From the NCBI RefSeq assembly GCF_007747445.1, contig NZ_CP036425.1, positions 1,286,175 through 1,350,174 of the forward strand: a stretch of DNA of 64,000 nucleotides, read 5' to 3'. Position numbers and translations under genes: made by a program. This DNA comes from Poriferisphaera corsica (GTDB lineage: Bacteria; Planctomycetota; Phycisphaerae; Phycisphaerales; Phycisphaeraceae). The stretch's first letter is position 1, and each line of letters starts with the position of its first letter. Of the stretch, positions 2,531-40,475 are shown piece by piece. The notes under the pieces are model-generated. The model was not told the DNA's origin and ran no database searches. It worked only from the letters and a program-made list of their open reading frames with translations.

Positions 2531-5431
2531 ATGCCAACAGAAACTTCTTTACAAGTAGACAGAATATCAGATCAGCAGGCATGTTATTACGCGCATGAGT
2601 TAACGCGAGTAGGTGCTGTTGGCGAAATAGATCGTTTGAGTGCAACTTTGTTCGATGCCAAGGTAGACTTGAATCCTCATCAAGTTGATGCAGCACTTTT
2701 TGCAATATCTAATCCCCTGCAAAAAGGCGTAATACTCGCTGATGAAGTTGGGTTAGGTAAAACAATTGAGGCCGGACTAGTTCTTTGTCAAAAATGGGCA
2801 GAACGTAAGCGTCGATTGATTATTGTTTCTCCCGCACATATACGAAAGCAGTGGCAAAGCGAGCTTGCCGACAAATTTAACCTGCCAAGTATTGTGATGG
2901 ATCGCAAGATCTTCAACCAGTTTAAACGAGAAGGCCATATTAACCCATTTGACTGTGGGAAAATCATTGTAATTTCATACGGTTTTGCCGCGCGTATGCA
3001 AGACGAACTCCGCGCTACTTCCTTCGATTTGGTAGTGTTTGATGAGGCTCACAAACTCCGAAACGCCTATCAGCCTAGTCGCAAGCAAGGGCAGAAGTTG
3101 CGATGGGCTTTTGAACTACGTCAAAAGCTACTCCTCACTGCAACACCCTTGCAAAATAGTTTATTGGAGTTGTATGGCCTCGGTTGGATGATTGACGAGC
3201 ACCTCTTTGGCGACAAAGGTGCTTTCCAAAGTCGGTACTGCCGGGCGGACGGGGACATTGAAGGCCTACGTCATCGTCTTAGCCAGTTCTGCAAAAGGAC
3301 ACTACGAAAAGACTGTGAATACGTGCGATATACAAAACGCCGCGCTATTACGCATCCCTTTACACAAAGCCAAGCAGAGAAAAACCTTTACGCTGATGTT
3401 CTCGCTTTCATGCAGCAAGACGAAAGCTATGCCTTTCCAGTTAAACAACGCCAATTGGTCGAAATCGTCGTCTTTAAAGCACTTGCTTCATCTCCCCAAG
3501 CATTGGCAGGCACATTGCGAACCATGCTTAAACGGCTTGAGAATTTACGTGATGGGATGAAGAAAAATGGGGGCGATGATTACTGGGATGAACTTGCAGC
3601 AGACGAAGATCTTGATATCGAAGATCTTGTTGATGAGTGGGATGAGGATGAAGATACCAACAAAGACACGCAATACGTCGATGGCCGCCTGCTCGCCAAA
3701 GAAGTTACACTCCTTCAATCGCTTATTGCACAAGCAGACAGCATTACATGTGACAGTAAATCCAACGCACTACTTGCTGCACTCAAGACTGGGTTCGCAG
3801 AGCTGGCGAAGCTCGGAGCACAGCGTAAAGCCCTTATCTTTACCGAGAGTCGTAAAACCCAAACCTTCCTCGCTGGATTTCTAGAGAAGAACGGTTACGC
3901 AGGCAAGGTCATCCAGTTCAACGGCAGCAACAACCACCCGCAAGCCAAAGCTGCATATGAGCAATTCAAACAGCGTTACCAAGACACCGACCGTTTTACG
4001 GGCAGCAAGGCAGTCGATATCCGTAGTGCCTTGATCGAAGCATTCCGTGAAAAAGGCGAAATTTTGCTTGCCACTGAAGCCGCCGCCGAGGGCGTCAATC
4101 TTCAATTCTGCTCGTTCGTTGTCAATCATGACATGCCTTGGAACCCTCAGCGGGTGGAACAACGCATCGGCCGCTGTCACCGTTACGGACAAAAGTTCGA
4201 CGTGGTCGTTTTAAATTTTCTGAATCAGGACAATCACGCCGACCAGCGTGTCCATATGCTGCTTGATGAAAAGTTCAATCTTTTTGATGGCGTGTTTGGA
4301 GCCAGTGATCACGTCCTTGGTACGCTGGAGAATGGCATAGACTTCGAGCGGCGCATCCTCGATATACTCAAAACCTGCCGTGACGCCCAAGCCATCGAAG
4401 CGGCCTTCAATCGTTTGCAAAGTGAACTGGAAGATGTCATCCAAGACAAGATGGGCAAGGCTAAACAGCAGCTCATGGAGCACTTCGATGCCGATGTCCA
4501 TGAACACCTCCAAACTCAGCGTCATGATGCCGAGCTGGCGCTTAACCGTATCCAAGAAAAATTCTGGAAGCTTGCTCAGTGGGGGCTAGCGGAGAATGCA
4601 AAGTTCGATCATCAGCGATTTAGTCTGGATCTGCTTACTTCGCCTGATGAGAAGATTCCGTCAGGCCAGCACCGGCTGATTTCTGCTGCCAAGCAGGACA
4701 AGAACGATACAGGCGACCATCATCTATTGCGGCTATCCAGTCCCTTAGGAGAGTGGCTCTTGGAAACTGCCAAGATGCAGGAATTGCCAACGCATGAACT
4801 GTATTTTGATCTTTCTTCACATCCAAAGAAAATTAGCATGCTTGAGCCGTTTAAGGGACAATGTGGCTGGCTTCGAGTCGAACGTCTTCGAGTTCAAACC
4901 GATACGGATGAAGACTTCCTCTTGGTCAGCGGGATCACTGACGACCTCAAGAGCATGGATGTCGAGTGCCTTGAGCGTCTTTGGGACCTTTTTGCTTTAG
5001 ATCAAGGACCACAAACGCTTAGCGACGCTGCCGACACTCGATTGTGCCAAGAGCTTGAGCAACATCGCCAGAGTATCTTGCTGAAACATTCGCAAGGGGT
5101 TGGAAAACGTCTTCAGCAATTACAAGACCAGCTTGAACAGTGGGCTGAAGACAAGGTGGAACCCGAGAAGCAGAAACTCGAAGATTTGCGTAACCAAAAA
5201 CGCCAGTACCGCCGACAAGCTCGATCGGCTAACACGATCGACGAGCAACTGGGTAGCCAAACTCAAGCTAGACAAACCGAAAAGCGGATTCGCAAGCAGG
5301 AAGAAGTGATCGCTCAGTTGCAAGACAAGCTCGATGACAAGCTCGATGAGATGTTTGATAAACTGAAAACAAGCAGCCAGCAAAAGGCCACACCCCAGAC
5401 CGTCCTAACCGTGAAGTGGAAAATCGTATGA
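2531..5431 (+). CDS. SNF2-family DNA helicase of a restriction-type cluster
   Basis: A superfamily 2 ATPase of the SNF2/RapA (HepA) type. Visible motifs are Walker A in ADEVGLGKT (residues 70-78), DEAH box VFDEAHK (from about 169), motif III LLTATPLQNS, and motif VI QRVEQRIGRCHRYGQ (about 540-555). An acidic linker (residues 345-380, many D/E) separates the two helicase lobes. Residues about 855-950 are rich in Q, K, E and L and predict a long coiled coil, perhaps for dimerisation or docking. The stop codon overlaps the start of the Mod gene as ATGA, so the two are translationally coupled. Helicases of this type are found beside type III-like Mod and Res genes in many genomes and probably act as a translocase within the defence complex; that role is inferred. 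Confidence 0.85.
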   Translation: MPTETSLQVDRISDQQACYYAHELTRVGAVGEIDRLSATLFDAKVDLNPHQVDAALFAISNPLQKGVILADEVGLGKTIEAGLVLCQKWAERKRRLIIVSPAHIRKQWQSELADKFNLPSIVMDRKIFNQFKREGHINPFDCGKIIVISYGFAARMQDELRATSFDLVVFDEAHKLRNAYQPSRKQGQKLRWAFELRQKLLLTATPLQNSLLELYGLGWMIDEHLFGDKGAFQSRYCRADGDIEGLRHRLSQFCKRTLRKDCEYVRYTKRRAITHPFTQSQAEKNLYADVLAFMQQDESYAFPVKQRQLVEIVVFKALASSPQALAGTLRTMLKRLENLRDGMKKNGGDDYWDELAADEDLDIEDLVDEWDEDEDTNKDTQYVDGRLLAKEVTLLQSLIAQADSITCDSKSNALLAALKTGFAELAKLGAQRKALIFTESRKTQTFLAGFLEKNGYAGKVIQFNGSNNHPQAKAAYEQFKQRYQDTDRFTGSKAVDIRSALIEAFREKGEILLATEAAAEGVNLQFCSFVVNHDMPWNPQRVEQRIGRCHRYGQKFDVVVLNFLNQDNHADQRVHMLLDEKFNLFDGVFGASDHVLGTLENGIDFERRILDILKTCRDAQAIEAAFNRLQSELEDVIQDKMGKAKQQLMEHFDADVHEHLQTQRHDAELALNRIQEKFWKLAQWGLAENAKFDHQRFSLDLLTSPDEKIPSGQHRLISAAKQDKNDTGDHHLLRLSSPLGEWLLETAKMQELPTHELYFDLSSHPKKISMLEPFKGQCGWLRVERLRVQTDTDEDFLLVSGITDDLKSMDVECLERLWDLFALDQGPQTLSDAADTRLCQELEQHRQSILLKHSQGVGKRLQQLQDQLEQWAEDKVEPEKQKLEDLRNQKRQYRRQARSANTIDEQLGSQTQARQTEKRIRKQEEVIAQLQDKLDDKLDEMFDKLKTSSQQKATPQTVLTVKWKIV

Positions 5432-36540: not shown

Positions 36541-37995
36541 CTATTTGCTGTGGAATTTTCCCTCCAAATAATCCAGATAACATCTCACATCTAACCCACT
36601 CCCCGTCGCGCGTTCACATAACTCATCCGCCTTATACTGCTGTCCATACTGATAAACATGTTCGTTCAACCATGCTCTAATCTGTTCGAAATCCCCACAC
36701 CTCACCGCATCATCAGCATCCCTAATCTTCGCATAGAGCTGCGCTGCATAAATACTCCCCAGCGTATAACACTGGAAATACCCAAACCCGCCGCATGCCC
36801 AATGAATATCCTGCAAATACCCCTCCCGATCATCTGTAATCTCAACCCCTAATTTCTCCCAATACATCTCTCGCCATGCTTCAGGTAAATCCTTCATCGT
36901 AAGTTCACCATTCAGTAACTGACGTTCCAAATCAAACCGCACCATCACATGCAGGTTGTAACTCACCTCATCCGCATCCACACGTATCGCCCCGGCCTGT
37001 ACGCGGTTCACCTGTCTAAACCATGCCTGTCCAGATAGCCCATGAGCGTCATTTAACCAATCGCAAAACGCTTCGCCCCGCCCCACCATATTCTCCCACA
37101 GTCGCGCCATCGCCTCATGAATTCCAAACGACGCCGCTAGCCCAGTCGGCAACCCCCACGCATTCTCTCTAAGCCCCTGTTCGTACAAGGCATGGCCTAA
37201 CTCATGGATAGCTCCCAAAATACCACATGAGCAGTCATCTACTTCATACCGACTCGTTAGCCGCACATCATCCCGCCCCATCTCCGTACAGAACGGATGT
37301 GCCGATTCATCAATTCTACCTCTCTCAAAATCAAACCCCATCGCATCTGCAATCTGTCTAACTAAATGCTTCTGCTCTTCGATCGGCATCGCCAATTGAT
37401 AATCATCCTCAGCCGCTTGTTTTTCACAGTTTTTCAGCAGCTCACGTAGTCGTTTTTCCATGTCCCCGAATACTTGTTCAATCCATTTCGCGCTGCAACC
37501 CGGCTCATACTCATCGGCAAGCGCGTCCCACATTTCACCATCCGTCTCCCATCCCAGGCAAGCCGCTTTCTCACGTTGCAATTCAATCATTTCCGTCAAT
37601 AATCTTAAATACGCATCATCATTCCCGCTCTCTCTTGCCGCAATCCATGCTTGCTCTGCTTCGCCCGCTTTTATTGCAATCGTTTTAACCAGTTGAGGCG
37701 ACAACTTCCTCAGTTTTTTGTACTCATACTCAATTTTCCGAACATTAGCAGCTAGCTCTGCATCCAGTACACGAGCATCGCATGCAGTGATTAGATCGCC
37801 TATTTGTGGGTTAGATCTTTTATGATGCGTGATCTCCGAAAGTAATCCCATCTGCTTCGCGCGTTGCCGCCCACCCTTCCGCGGCATCAAGACCGACAGA
37901 TCCCAATGTAATTGGCTAAAACAACTCCCTACCATCCATGCCTCGCGCCATTGCCGCATGAGTTCCAAATATGCTTCATGATTTTCCAAATACAT
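36541..37995 (-). CDS. M32-family metallocarboxypeptidase (Taq type)
   Basis: A 484-residue zinc carboxypeptidase. The HExxH motif is in AIHELGHALYEQGL, and the N-terminus (AYLELMRQWREA, WDLSVLMPRKGGRQRAKQM) and C-terminus (YLDYLEGKF) match thermostable Taq carboxypeptidase. It removes C-terminal residues from peptides in the cytoplasm. The open frame continues to GTG 38067, but ATG 37995 fits the family N-terminus and has GGGAG just upstream. A short relic of a similar 3' end lies at 34695-34755. Confidence 0.92.
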   Translation of the reverse strand: MYLENHEAYLELMRQWREAWMVGSCFSQLHWDLSVLMPRKGGRQRAKQMGLLSEITHHKRSNPQIGDLITACDARVLDAELAANVRKIEYEYKKLRKLSPQLVKTIAIKAGEAEQAWIAARESGNDDAYLRLLTEMIELQREKAACLGWETDGEMWDALADEYEPGCSAKWIEQVFGDMEKRLRELLKNCEKQAAEDDYQLAMPIEEQKHLVRQIADAMGFDFERGRIDESAHPFCTEMGRDDVRLTSRYEVDDCSCGILGAIHELGHALYEQGLRENAWGLPTGLAASFGIHEAMARLWENMVGRGEAFCDWLNDAHGLSGQAWFRQVNRVQAGAIRVDADEVSYNLHVMVRFDLERQLLNGELTMKDLPEAWREMYWEKLGVEITDDREGYLQDIHWACGGFGYFQCYTLGSIYAAQLYAKIRDADDAVRCGDFEQIRAWLNEHVYQYGQQYKADELCERATGSGLDVRCYLDYLEGKFHSK

Positions 37996-38283
37996 TCTCC
38001 CGCTAATATTCCGTATCCTAACAATCCCCCCCGAAACGACTATCGATACAACCTCACTTTTTCCCACTCACCCATTCCGTAACCCCGCATGTGAGCATTC
38101 GCAATCTAACCATACCTCAATAGAACCATATTGCTTATAGGGTATTTCATCATCAATAGCACTTTGTTCATTGACATCCAGATTCAATTTGTAAACAACG
38201 CTTTAACTTCATGCCGTATATACATAAAAATTAGTGCTTTTTAGACTTTTTTTTATAACCTCAAACTGACACGGCCAAACCAT

Positions 38284-39585
38284 ATGAATCAAACATTGCT
38301 TGCTGCCTCATCAATCAATCAAGACGATGAACGCTCCATAGAAGTTAATCAAGCCATCGATATCGCATTGAACGATATCAAAACACTTGGTTGCAAATGT
38401 GAAATTCATACCTACGGCCATGCCATCACCATCTATGAAGCTCGTATCCTTGATCACCACAAAAATGTTCTAGCACTCGGTACCGGCAAAGGTGAGTATC
38501 CCTTCAATAAGGCCGGCGCAATCTTCGAAGCTATCGAACATTTCTTTGGCATGAGCAATCTACCCGCACCACAATCCCTTCAAACCATCAACACGCAAGT
38601 ACTTGCAGATCAATCTGTCGCGCATGAATACCTACCGCTCAAACTTCTCACAGATTTCCCTCATCAAGATCTATTCTGTTCAACCTATCACGAGTACAAC
38701 CAGCCCAACAACAAGCTCATTCTTCCAGCTTTCCTTTGGGCGCCAGAGATTCTTTCGCGTTCCGAATACATCTGTGATTCTCAAAACGTGCAGCTTTTTT
38801 CATACCTCATGAAATATTCCTCCAACTCCGGTATTGCCTCAGGTCTTACCACCCAAGACGCTCTTCTTCACAGCATTAATGAAGCCATTGAACGTGATGG
38901 CCTCGGGGCGTTTCTCTATCAATATTGCTACAAACAAACTTCCAGTAAGCTTCCTGTGATCGATAAGGAGTCTTTGCCAGAACCCCTCAAATCGAACATC
39001 CAAGAGATTGAACAACACGTTAATGATCAATGCATTCTCATTAACGCAACGACCAATCTTCGTGTACCAGTCATCGCTGCTATCTTTAAGAATTATCACA
39101 AACAACAGCTCATTCCCGCACCCGGATTTGGCGCATCTCTTTATCCAGAAATTGCCATAAAACGCGCAGTTCACGAGGCGCTTCAGATTATGTTCGCAGC
39201 CGAGAACTATCACGATCAACGCGTCGCTTCATGGAAACGTGATTGGCAACGTGCCCAACAATCCGATGCCTACGCTCGCTGTACGCAATTCAACCTACAG
39301 CCATACCTGGACAACGACCGCCTTGATTTCCAATCTTTCGAACGATTACATCACAAGTCAGTCACTCTCGACGCGCATGCACACGTGAATCAACAAATAT
39401 CACGTCTCATCTCTCGACTTAAAAAATATAACCTCACCGTGTACATGCAAAATCTAAAAAAACTCAAGAATGGCACAAATGTAGTTAGTGTTCAAATACC
39501 CGGAGTCAGTTTATTCTACTTAACAAGTAATGGTATGATGATTCCACCACATAGCCGAACAATCACTTGTATGAATCCAAACTGA
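38284..39585 (+). CDS. Stand-alone YcaO-domain protein
   Basis: A 433-residue YcaO-family protein. Conserved segments are GKGEYPFNKAGAIFEAIEHF (about 75-95), SSNSGIASGLTTQDAL and INEAIERDGLGAF (about 180-212), and a C-terminal IPPHSRT. YcaO enzymes use ATP to activate a peptide amide and make azolines, thioamides or amidines; they are the signature enzymes of many RiPP pathways, and others act on ribosomal protein S12 or unknown targets. No E1-like/ocin-ThiF partner, TfuA or dehydrogenase is encoded nearby. The next gene, 143 bp downstream on the same strand, encodes a 32-residue peptide. No Shine-Dalgarno sequence is evident before ATG 38284. The leader (38068-38283) shows nothing else. Confidence 0.88.
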   Translation: MNQTLLAASSINQDDERSIEVNQAIDIALNDIKTLGCKCEIHTYGHAITIYEARILDHHKNVLALGTGKGEYPFNKAGAIFEAIEHFFGMSNLPAPQSLQTINTQVLADQSVAHEYLPLKLLTDFPHQDLFCSTYHEYNQPNNKLILPAFLWAPEILSRSEYICDSQNVQLFSYLMKYSSNSGIASGLTTQDALLHSINEAIERDGLGAFLYQYCYKQTSSKLPVIDKESLPEPLKSNIQEIEQHVNDQCILINATTNLRVPVIAAIFKNYHKQQLIPAPGFGASLYPEIAIKRAVHEALQIMFAAENYHDQRVASWKRDWQRAQQSDAYARCTQFNLQPYLDNDRLDFQSFERLHHKSVTLDAHAHVNQQISRLISRLKKYNLTVYMQNLKKLKNGTNVVSVQIPGVSLFYLTSNGMMIPPHSRTITCMNPN

Positions 39586-39728
39586 TCAACGAATAATAAA
39601 TATTAAATCAACGATAAACCATTACACAATACGTGTTAATCACAGGTTTGATTTACGAAGTAACACCTACTATGGTTCACAGTAACTCGCTGATTTAAAT
39701 GTAAGAACTACTAATAAAGGAACATAAT

Positions 39729-39827
39729 ATGAATAAATGGAAAGGCGGCTTCCTCGCCTCGGATAATGATGATAATAAACTGACTGACTCAGAACGCGAA
39801 ATGATTGAAGATAACAACACAGACTAA
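39729..39827 (+). CDS. 32-residue acidic peptide behind YcaO, candidate modification substrate
   Basis: The peptide starts MNKWKGGFLA, followed by a strongly acidic part (residues 11-32) with nine Asp or Glu in the first 18 positions and C-terminal NNTD. Residues S11, N13, D15, K17, L18, T19 and E22 fit a 12-residue EF-hand-like loop. There is no cysteine; Ser11, Thr19, Ser21 and Thr31 are the only hydroxyl residues. AAAGGA lies eight bases before the ATG and a strong terminator follows 20 bp after the stop, so this looks like a real, separately ended small gene. Whether the YcaO protein acts on it is unproven; a short calcium-binding or leader-like peptide with no link to YcaO is the alternative. 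Confidence 0.55.
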   Translation: MNKWKGGFLASDNDDNKLTDSEREMIEDNNTD

Positions 39828-39847
39828 GTGTTTATTATTGCATGTTA

Positions 39848-39882
39848 AAAGAGCAGGATATACTTCGTGTCCTGCTCTTTTT
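39848..39882. terminator. Strong terminator between the small peptide gene and the GNAT gene
   Basis: Stem AAAGAGCAGGA / TCCTGCTCTTT (11 bp) with an 11-base loop and a following T-rich run. With A-runs on the left it can serve the peptide gene on the plus strand and the convergent acetyltransferase gene (ending at 39909) on the minus strand. Confidence 0.9.
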
Positions 39883-39908: not shown

Positions 39909-40475
39909 TCAGCTGCCCCAATCGCTGTTCGTCATAGCATACAGGTTTAAATCCACACGTCTCCCTCGCCATGTCGCGACTCCGCGTTGGCATCCTTCAT
40001 AAACAAAACCAGCCAATTCAGCAACACGGCAACTTTTCAAATTATTAGGTTCAACTTGAATGACGACGCGCATCAAACCCATCTCGTTAAACCCATATGC
40101 CAACATTGTCCGTATCACCTCTCGCATTAATCCCCGGCCTCTCGCATTACCTGTCAGCCAATACGTCATCTCAGCCGATGCTAAGTGAATAGCTTTTTCT
40201 TGATTTTCCAATTCTCGCCACGACTCAAATCCCACCTCGCCCACAATTTTCTCATCATGCAGAATGACCATGTAAACCGCTTCACGCCGCTTAAATTCTC
40301 CCATTGCCTTCTCAATAAATCGCTCCGCCGTATCAACCCCGTACCGCTTATCCGCCCATAAAAACCACTCGGACAAGTCCTCATCATTCGCCAATACCAC
40401 ACGAGATAACTCAGCCGCATGACGCTTCTCAACCAATTCCAAATTAGTCCGCTCATTCACCTTAAGCCGCATCAC
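39909..40475 (-). CDS. GNAT acetyltransferase, RimJ/RimL-like
   Basis: A 188-residue protein with the GNAT fold. GEVGFESW marks strand 4, ARGRGLMREVIRTMLAYGF the acetyl-CoA pyrophosphate loop (Q/RxxGxG/A type), and GLMRVVIQVEPNNLKSCRVAELAGFVYEG the C-terminal part typical of the RimJ/RimL subgroup. These acetylate the N-termini of ribosomal proteins or small amines. It is 34 bp downstream of a SprT-like gene on the same strand. The acceptor substrate is not determinable. Confidence 0.85.
   Translation of the reverse strand: MMRLKVNERTNLELVEKRHAAELSRVVLANDEDLSEWFLWADKRYGVDTAERFIEKAMGEFKRREAVYMVILHDEKIVGEVGFESWRELENQEKAIHLASAEMTYWLTGNARGRGLMREVIRTMLAYGFNEMGLMRVVIQVEPNNLKSCRVAELAGFVYEGCQRGVATWRGRRVDLNLYAMTNSDWGS

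What the first reader, a model, noticed from the sequence alone, without database searches (positions are those of the whole stretch)
38284..39882. YcaO enzyme gene followed by a 32-residue peptide gene with its own ribosome-binding site and terminator
The small gene at 39729-39827 has a good AAAGGA site and an 11-bp terminator, which a chance ORF would seldom have. YcaO proteins modify peptide backbones, and RiPP precursors are small genes next to them. Here no cyclodehydratase partner, TfuA, protease or transporter is adjacent, and the peptide has no cysteine, so a known azole or thioamide pathway is unlikely. If it is a substrate, it would be a stand-alone YcaO acting on an acidic, EF-hand-like peptide, which I do not know from described systems.
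Basis: partly seen in the sequence, partly recalled or inferred. Interest (0 to 1): 0.65.

Follow-up and report, generated by a model that had tools for sequence, protein, structure and literature searches.

The report
Peptide gene paired with backbone-modifying enzyme
A marine planctomycete carries a tiny peptide gene beside a backbone-modifying YcaO enzyme; similar pairs occur in a sister species and in distant bacteria, and the enzyme resembles the ring-forming enzyme of the antibiotic bottromycin, so this looks like an overlooked minimal modified-peptide pathway.

Summary
The genome (4,291,168 bp, the size of Poriferisphaera corsica KS4) holds two YcaO loci, each with a related small ORF. 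Its congener ZRK32 has both loci too: A (51% YcaO identity) with two tandem KWKGG peptides, B with an MGSCYxGTxxCC peptide. The YcaO belongs to a cross-phylum group of stand-alone YcaOs: in 39 of 49 relatives a Met-Gly ORF with a ribosome-binding site lies just upstream, against 19 of 1389 background stretches. A profile of the group gives bottromycin's macroamidine enzyme BtmF 260 bits and the other reference YcaOs at most 118. As in bottromycin, core comes first and a follower last. TfuA was not found in either genome. Most likely the YcaO activates a core amide with ATP and an amine closes an amidine ring (-18 Da). The pairing is well supported; the chemistry is inferred. It is not a bottromycin: core, partner genes and precursor model differ. 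The window peptide breaks the group's Met-Gly start, so which amine reacts is open. A convergent acetyltransferase travels with locus A. The EF-hand reading is not supported.

The parts
38284..39585 (+). stand-alone YcaO enzyme gene (433 aa), bottromycin BtmF-like group
   Evidence: PF02624 E=5.1e-32; group profile 328 bits; residues invariant in a 30-row alignment are present, e.g. E82, E85, H86, E200, E203, R204, E298, Q301; AF2 model pLDDT 91.8, YcaO fold
39716..39721 (+). ribosome-binding site AAAGGA of the peptide gene
   Evidence: read from sequence, 7 nt before the ATG
39729..39827 (+). precursor peptide gene, 32 aa, MNKWKGGFLASDNDDNKLTDSEREMIEDNNTD
   Evidence: homologues beside YcaO at KS4 locus B and ZRK32 loci A and B
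39729..39758 (+). proposed N-terminal core (residues 1-10, with KWKGG)
   Evidence: KWKGG kept in the two ZRK32 locus A peptides; the border with the follower is an inference
39759..39824 (+). proposed C-terminal follower (residues 11-32, with TxxExxxI)
   Evidence: [TSN]xxExxx[IL] read in all five Poriferisphaera peptides, in the bottromycin precursor and in most group peptides; actinobacterial model E=0.031
39847..39881 (+). intrinsic terminator-like hairpin of the peptide gene
   Evidence: 15 pairs, T-rich tail; fold -21.0 kcal/mol
39909..40475 (-). GNAT acetyltransferase, convergent, probable third part of locus A
   Evidence: PF13302 E=4.7e-21; best ZRK32 match lies beside its locus A YcaO (42%, 150 bits; next 33 bits)

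Best explanation
A minimal RiPP locus. The 32-residue peptide is the precursor of the adjacent stand-alone YcaO, which is of the bottromycin BtmF type. The enzyme binds the C-terminal follower, uses ATP to activate a backbone amide in the N-terminal core (around KWKGG), and an amine attacks the activated carbonyl and closes an amidine ring with loss of water. Peptidases coded elsewhere remove the follower; the conserved GNAT acetylates the product or protects the cell. Shown by computation: the gene pair, its recurrence, the core/follower layout and the kinship of the enzyme. Inferred: that the peptide is modified, that the product is an amidine, which amine attacks, and the roles of follower, peptidases and GNAT.
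For: A related peptide gene beside each of four YcaO loci in two genomes; the core type follows the locus. The ZRK32 locus B peptide was found genome-wide by a four-row profile that did not hold it, E=0.0011. Group rule: Met-Gly ORF with RBS upstream in 39 of 49 loci against 19 of 1389 background stretches. With a follower-only model and starts chosen by RBS, 29 of 49 loci gave a counted candidate and all 29 have Gly second. Group profile: BtmF 260 and 258 bits; other references 118 or less; BtmE 56 and 50. BtmF with BtmI makes the bottromycin macroamidine and needs the follower (PMC5103208, parts 1-2 of 3 read). No TfuA in either genome. Precursor transcripts ended by a terminator resemble btmD (PMC7113386, passages).
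Against: No product is known. The window peptide starts Met-Asn and two of three locus A peptides do so (third Met-Ser), against the Met-Gly rule, so the attacking amine is unclear. No BtmI-type amidohydrolase, peptidase or transporter was seen beside the pair; the genome was not searched for them. Sequence support for the window peptide as a group member is modest: E=0.031, while a spurious ORF reached 0.081, the bottromycin precursors 0.8, the ZRK32 locus B peptide 5.3, and the KS4 locus B and ZRK32 locus A peptides were not listed up to E=20. BLASTP between the two KS4 peptides gave E=4.6. Branch order around BtmF and BtmE is unresolved. In 10 of 49 loci the strict rule found no Met-Gly ORF.
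Confidence: 0.65

Rival explanations
1. Same precursor/enzyme pair, but other chemistry: an azoline on Ser, Thr or Cys, an amidine made by a lysine side chain, or another ATP-driven backbone change, instead of an N-terminal amidine.
For: The locus B core has three Cys; locus A has two conserved Lys and no Gly after Met. BtmE of bottromycin, also stand-alone, is thought to make a thiazoline (PMC5103208). Nearest solved fold is a thioamide-forming YcaO, 6peu/MJ1094 (its role is recalled).
Against: The KWKGG core has no Ser, Thr or Cys. The group profile is far nearer to BtmF than to BtmE. TfuA is not found.
Confidence: 0.25
2. The YcaO modifies a cell protein (as E. coli YcaO is thought to do) and the peptide is a regulator or an unrelated small gene.
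For: In locus A the peptide is a separate terminated unit downstream. No transporter is adjacent.
Against: Peptide and YcaO recur together at both loci of both genomes and the pattern holds across phyla. E. coli YcaO falls outside the group.
Confidence: 0.07
3. The small ORF is a chance ORF.
For: 32 aa; no Pfam or NCBIfam match.
Against: RBS, terminator, KWKGG homologues in another species, related peptide at locus B.
Confidence: 0.03

Closest known systems
Bottromycin pathway (precursor BtmD, macroamidine YcaO BtmF)
   Same: Stand-alone YcaO, group profile 260 bits, shared ExxEH; precursor with N-terminal core and C-terminal follower holding [TSN]xxExxx[IL]; hairpin after the precursor gene
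   Different: Core KWKGG, not GPVVVFDC; Met-Asn start at locus A; one YcaO per locus; no radical SAM methyltransferase, amidohydrolase, hydrolase or P450 adjacent
Streptamidine (ami) family
   Same: YcaO-made amidine RiPP (PMC8442711, parts 1-3 of 5 read)
   Different: No ALV of its motifs in the window peptide; no AmiB-, FecBCDE- or AmiE-like genes seen adjacent; streptamidine's core is internal and needs AmiB and a dehydrogenase
YcaO/TfuA thioamide pathways and the McrA-glycine YcaO
   Same: YcaO fold; 6peu is the best PDB match by Foldseek; TIGR03266 64 bits, far under its cut-off of 365
   Different: No TfuA found in either genome; small peptide partner
Azol(in)e TOMM cyclodehydratases (SagD, E1-fused YcaO)
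   Same: YcaO domain; TIGR03604 75 bits, under its cut-off of 219.25
   Different: No E1-like partner seen nearby; no Cys, Ser or Thr in KWKGG; E1-fused YcaOs lie outside the group

Membership tests
RiPP precursor with YcaO (general) | small gene beside the enzyme gene, conserved with it in relatives | tested here: met
   four of four YcaO loci in two genomes; 39 of 49 relatives by one strict rule
RiPP precursor with YcaO (general) | modified peptide product | not testable with these tools
   no mass spectra at hand
Bottromycin family | YcaO of the BtmF kind without E1 or TfuA partner | tested here: inconclusive
   profile 260 bits and ExxEH support it; TfuA not found; tree order unresolved, clade with BtmF not rejected, p-AU 0.229; E1 partner not searched genome-wide
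Bottromycin family | N-terminal core and C-terminal follower in the precursor | tested here: met
   layout by alignment with ZRK32 and actinobacterial peptides; function of the follower not tested
Bottromycin family | precursor model NF033414 | tested here: not met
   window peptide has no NCBIfam match up to E=10
Bottromycin family | Met-Gly start giving a free Gly1 | tested here: not met
   window peptide starts Met-Asn; locus B peptides start Met-Gly
Bottromycin family | adjacent second YcaO, methyltransferases, amidohydrolase, P450 | tested here: not met
   neighbours are an M32 carboxypeptidase, a GNAT and a SprT-like gene; bottromycin order
Bottromycin family | macroamidine in the product | not testable with these tools
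   needs MS and NMR
Streptamidine family | motif A or B with ALV in the precursor | tested here: not met
   no ALV in the window peptide; motif as told in PMC8442711
YcaO/TfuA thioamidation | TfuA partner | tested here: not met
   0 of 2 genomes match PF07812; control finds it in Methanosarcina acetivorans
Azol(in)e TOMM | E1- or ocin-ThiF-like partner | not tested
   none seen among neighbour ORFs; genome not searched
EF-hand | EF-hand loop and family match | tested here: not met
   no Pfam match up to E=10; D/N stretch not kept in relatives

The most novel reading that the evidence does not exclude
A cross-phylum, apparently unnamed class of leaderless, follower-guided peptides made by BtmF-like stand-alone YcaOs, mostly with Gly1 as the ring-closing amine; the Poriferisphaera KWKGG branch departs from the Gly rule and uses another amine (a lysine side chain or a newly exposed N terminus), giving a ring type not yet described, with a linked acetyltransferase.
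Probability: 0.25. Interest if true: 0.8.

Novelty: new variant of a known kind. Interest (0 to 1): 0.6.

Why it matters
Few stand-alone YcaOs have a known peptide substrate. A two- or three-gene system with a 32-residue substrate would be a small model of follower-guided amide activation. It also gives a search handle, a Met-Gly peptide with an LTxxExxxL follower before a YcaO, for peptides that Pfam did not match (0 of 10 tested) and that NCBIfam matched only by chance (2 of 10, far under cut-off). The P. corsica paper's antiSMASH 4.0 table lists only two terpenoid clusters for this genome (PMC7783415, passages).

Tried and rejected
EF-hand peptide: rejected, no family match and no conservation of the loop. 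Thioamidation: TfuA not found in either genome. Viral carriage: no relative confirmed in viral contigs or phage records. M32 carboxypeptidase as the follower-removing partner: not kept, since it is not beside the ZRK32 YcaO. BLASTP of the two KS4 peptides gave 9.2 bits, E=4.6; shuffling and profile tests were used as well, and the BLAST result stands against an easy homology claim. A single-protein scan of genome contigs found no relative; the alignment scan did.

Literature: ten searches. No paper that I opened names this peptide family, but I opened nine papers, most of them by passages only; listed papers such as PMC8824727 (Pantoea) and PMC9484694 were not opened. The library holds open-licence papers only, and the supplements of PMC8442711, which list its peptide networks, could not be read, so some of these peptides may already stand there.

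Choices: I scanned 41 of the 155 neighbour ORFs, same-strand downstream ones picked by hand. In one search one row (L008) was left out by the program. In one search I used 30 of the 68 YcaO rows gathered.

Full report
WHAT IS THERE. The window lies in a single-contig genome of 4,291,168 bp, the size printed for Poriferisphaera corsica KS4 in PMC7783415 (passages); the name is inferred from that size.

SECOND LOCUS IN THE SAME GENOME. The YcaO finds a second one at 670261-671542 (44% and 37% identity in two pieces), which holds an in-frame stop and a frameshift. Just upstream is a small ORF, MGSCYSGTGICCQLADSENNNNKLNEKEIRLIRNNN..., that shares S-x-N-x-x-NKL-x-x-x-E-x-x-x-I-x-x-NN with the window peptide. 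The local score, 52, is reached by 8 of 100,000 shuffles, and the next best of 1173 ORFs scores 35; BLASTP with composition adjustment gives E=4.6. A profile of these two, run over the genome, returns only these two places up to E=10.

SISTER SPECIES. Of 51 genomes of the family, two match the YcaO: this one and one of the same genus, whose contig length, 5,234,020, equals that of CP066225.1, strain ZRK32. In a draw of 392 genomes of the phylum, 3 match, this genome among them and the other two weakly. ZRK32 has two YcaO loci. Locus A (51%) has two peptide ORFs downstream, MNIKWKGGMIVPRVVNN... and MSIKWKGGLIVPRTTNN..., each with a purine-rich RBS and a following hairpin. Locus B (43%, intact) has upstream MGSCYTGTWNCCGRAGSNLKKNRLTKKEAEIIKK..., found by a four-row profile that did not hold it, E=0.0011; the same search gave one poor hit inside a long ORF of KS4, E=1.58. 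A hairpin lies between peptide and YcaO in both B loci (KS4 folded; ZRK32 read from the sequence). So each of four YcaO loci has a peptide, and the core type (KWKGG or MGSCYxGTxxCC) follows the locus. All five peptides hold [TSN]xxExxx[IL] after the core, as does the bottromycin precursor; this loose pattern was noticed after the fact.

LOCUS A MODULE. Comparing the 64-kb window with 18 kb around the ZRK32 locus, the matches are the YcaO (51%), the convergent GNAT (41%) and one weak 26% pair far from both. The GNAT's best ZRK32 match is the one beside the YcaO (150 bits; next 33). The GNAT is therefore probably a third part. Locus B sits in a syntenic neighbourhood, which says less.

RELATIVES ELSEWHERE. 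An alignment-based scan gave 49 loci. By one strict rule (ATG-Gly ORF of 30-90 aa with an RBS, ending -450 to +60 of the first matched YcaO base), 39 of 49 have such an ORF, against 19 of 1389 background stretches. Of the ten without, ZRK32 has its peptides downstream, L054 has a GTG start, L056 a late-starting match with MGNVVDFV... further up, L047 a downstream MGIDINYD... with GTG start, and L018 an Met-Gly ORF without RBS; for L041, L050, L059, L063 and L065 I found none. As that rule asks for Gly, I repeated it with a follower-only model that left out the locus itself (and all Nonomuraea-type rows for such loci), starts chosen by RBS: 29 of 49 loci gave a candidate at E<=1, all 29 with Gly second; 18 gave none and two were not counted. 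The model's training rows had themselves been picked by the Met-Gly rule. A model of 35 actinobacterial peptides over 3516 ORFs of 26 sources put the window peptide first among ORFs of non-actinobacterial sources (E=0.031), then Pantoea (0.032); a spurious ORF had 0.081, the bottromycin precursors 0.8, the ZRK32 B peptide 5.3; the other three Poriferisphaera peptides were not listed up to E=20.

KINSHIP OF THE ENZYME. NF033414 found bottromycin precursors in 2 of 392 Streptomyces genomes. The gene order precursor, YcaO, YcaO, radical SAM, alpha/beta hydrolase, amidohydrolase, P450 marks the second YcaO as BtmF, which with BtmI makes the macroamidine (PMC5103208, parts 1-2 of 3). The profile of the 49 relatives, which holds ZRK32 A but not the window or BtmF, scores the window 328, BtmF 260 and 258, an M. 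chelonae plasmid YcaO 118, a TfuA-neighbour 109, E1-fused 90 and 79, BtmE 56 and 50, E. coli 51. Group rows, BtmF and the M. chelonae YcaO share ExxEH; BtmE, E. coli and the E1-fused row shown have ExxER and the TfuA-neighbour ExxEV. In the trees the three intact Poriferisphaera YcaOs form a 100/100 clade; the group together with BtmF and BtmE parts from E1-fused, TfuA-neighbour and E. coli YcaOs (98/93, 97/94), but the order inside is unresolved and BtmE moves between trees. Holding group and BtmF together without BtmE is not rejected (p-AU 0.229). The AF2 model (pLDDT 91.8) is a YcaO fold; 6peu is the best PDB match.

MECHANISM. I think the YcaO binds the follower, activates a core backbone amide with ATP and lets an amine close an amidine. 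For locus B and the wider group the amine would be Gly1 after Met removal, as in bottromycin. For locus A the start is Met-Asn (two peptides) or Met-Ser (one). Met before Asn is usually kept (general knowledge), so either a peptidase trims to the conserved KWKGG or a lysine acts. This step is open. TfuA was not found in either genome.

STATUS. It works like bottromycin's macrocyclisation step but is not a bottromycin: precursor model, core, partner genes and second YcaO are missing. It is a new variant of a known kind; the literature check was limited (see Tried and rejected).

Noticed in passing
L019:6279-8456, L014 (ORF after the YcaO) and other Streptosporangiaceae-type loci: Of 41 downstream neighbour ORFs scanned, 10 match NACHT (PF05729): a Met-Gly peptide, YcaO and NACHT NTPase cassette whose meaning is unknown.
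   Followed up: no
L010:8256-9552 (KS4 locus B): The second YcaO of KS4 is broken by an in-frame stop and a frameshift while its peptide ORF is open; ZRK32 has an intact counterpart. An assembly error cannot be excluded.
   Followed up: partly
L010:9756-11631 and L068:8149-9970: Locus B is followed in both genomes by two conserved membrane-protein ORFs and a further ORF (83-87% identity), which look from memory like YeeE/YedE sulphur transporters and an ArsR-type regulator (not run against a family library).
   Followed up: no
L085:2815-2958 and 3136-4284: A Mycobacteroides chelonae plasmid carries a YcaO with ExxEH and a Met-Gly small ORF upstream; it joins BtmF on a long branch in one tree.
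   Followed up: partly
L013:4731-7920: A Streptomyces plasmid locus of the group has peptide, YcaO and a SagB-type dehydrogenase in a row, so some members may add oxidation.
   Followed up: no
36541-38067 (-): M32 carboxypeptidase gene divergent from the YcaO; not beside the ZRK32 YcaO.
   Followed up: partly
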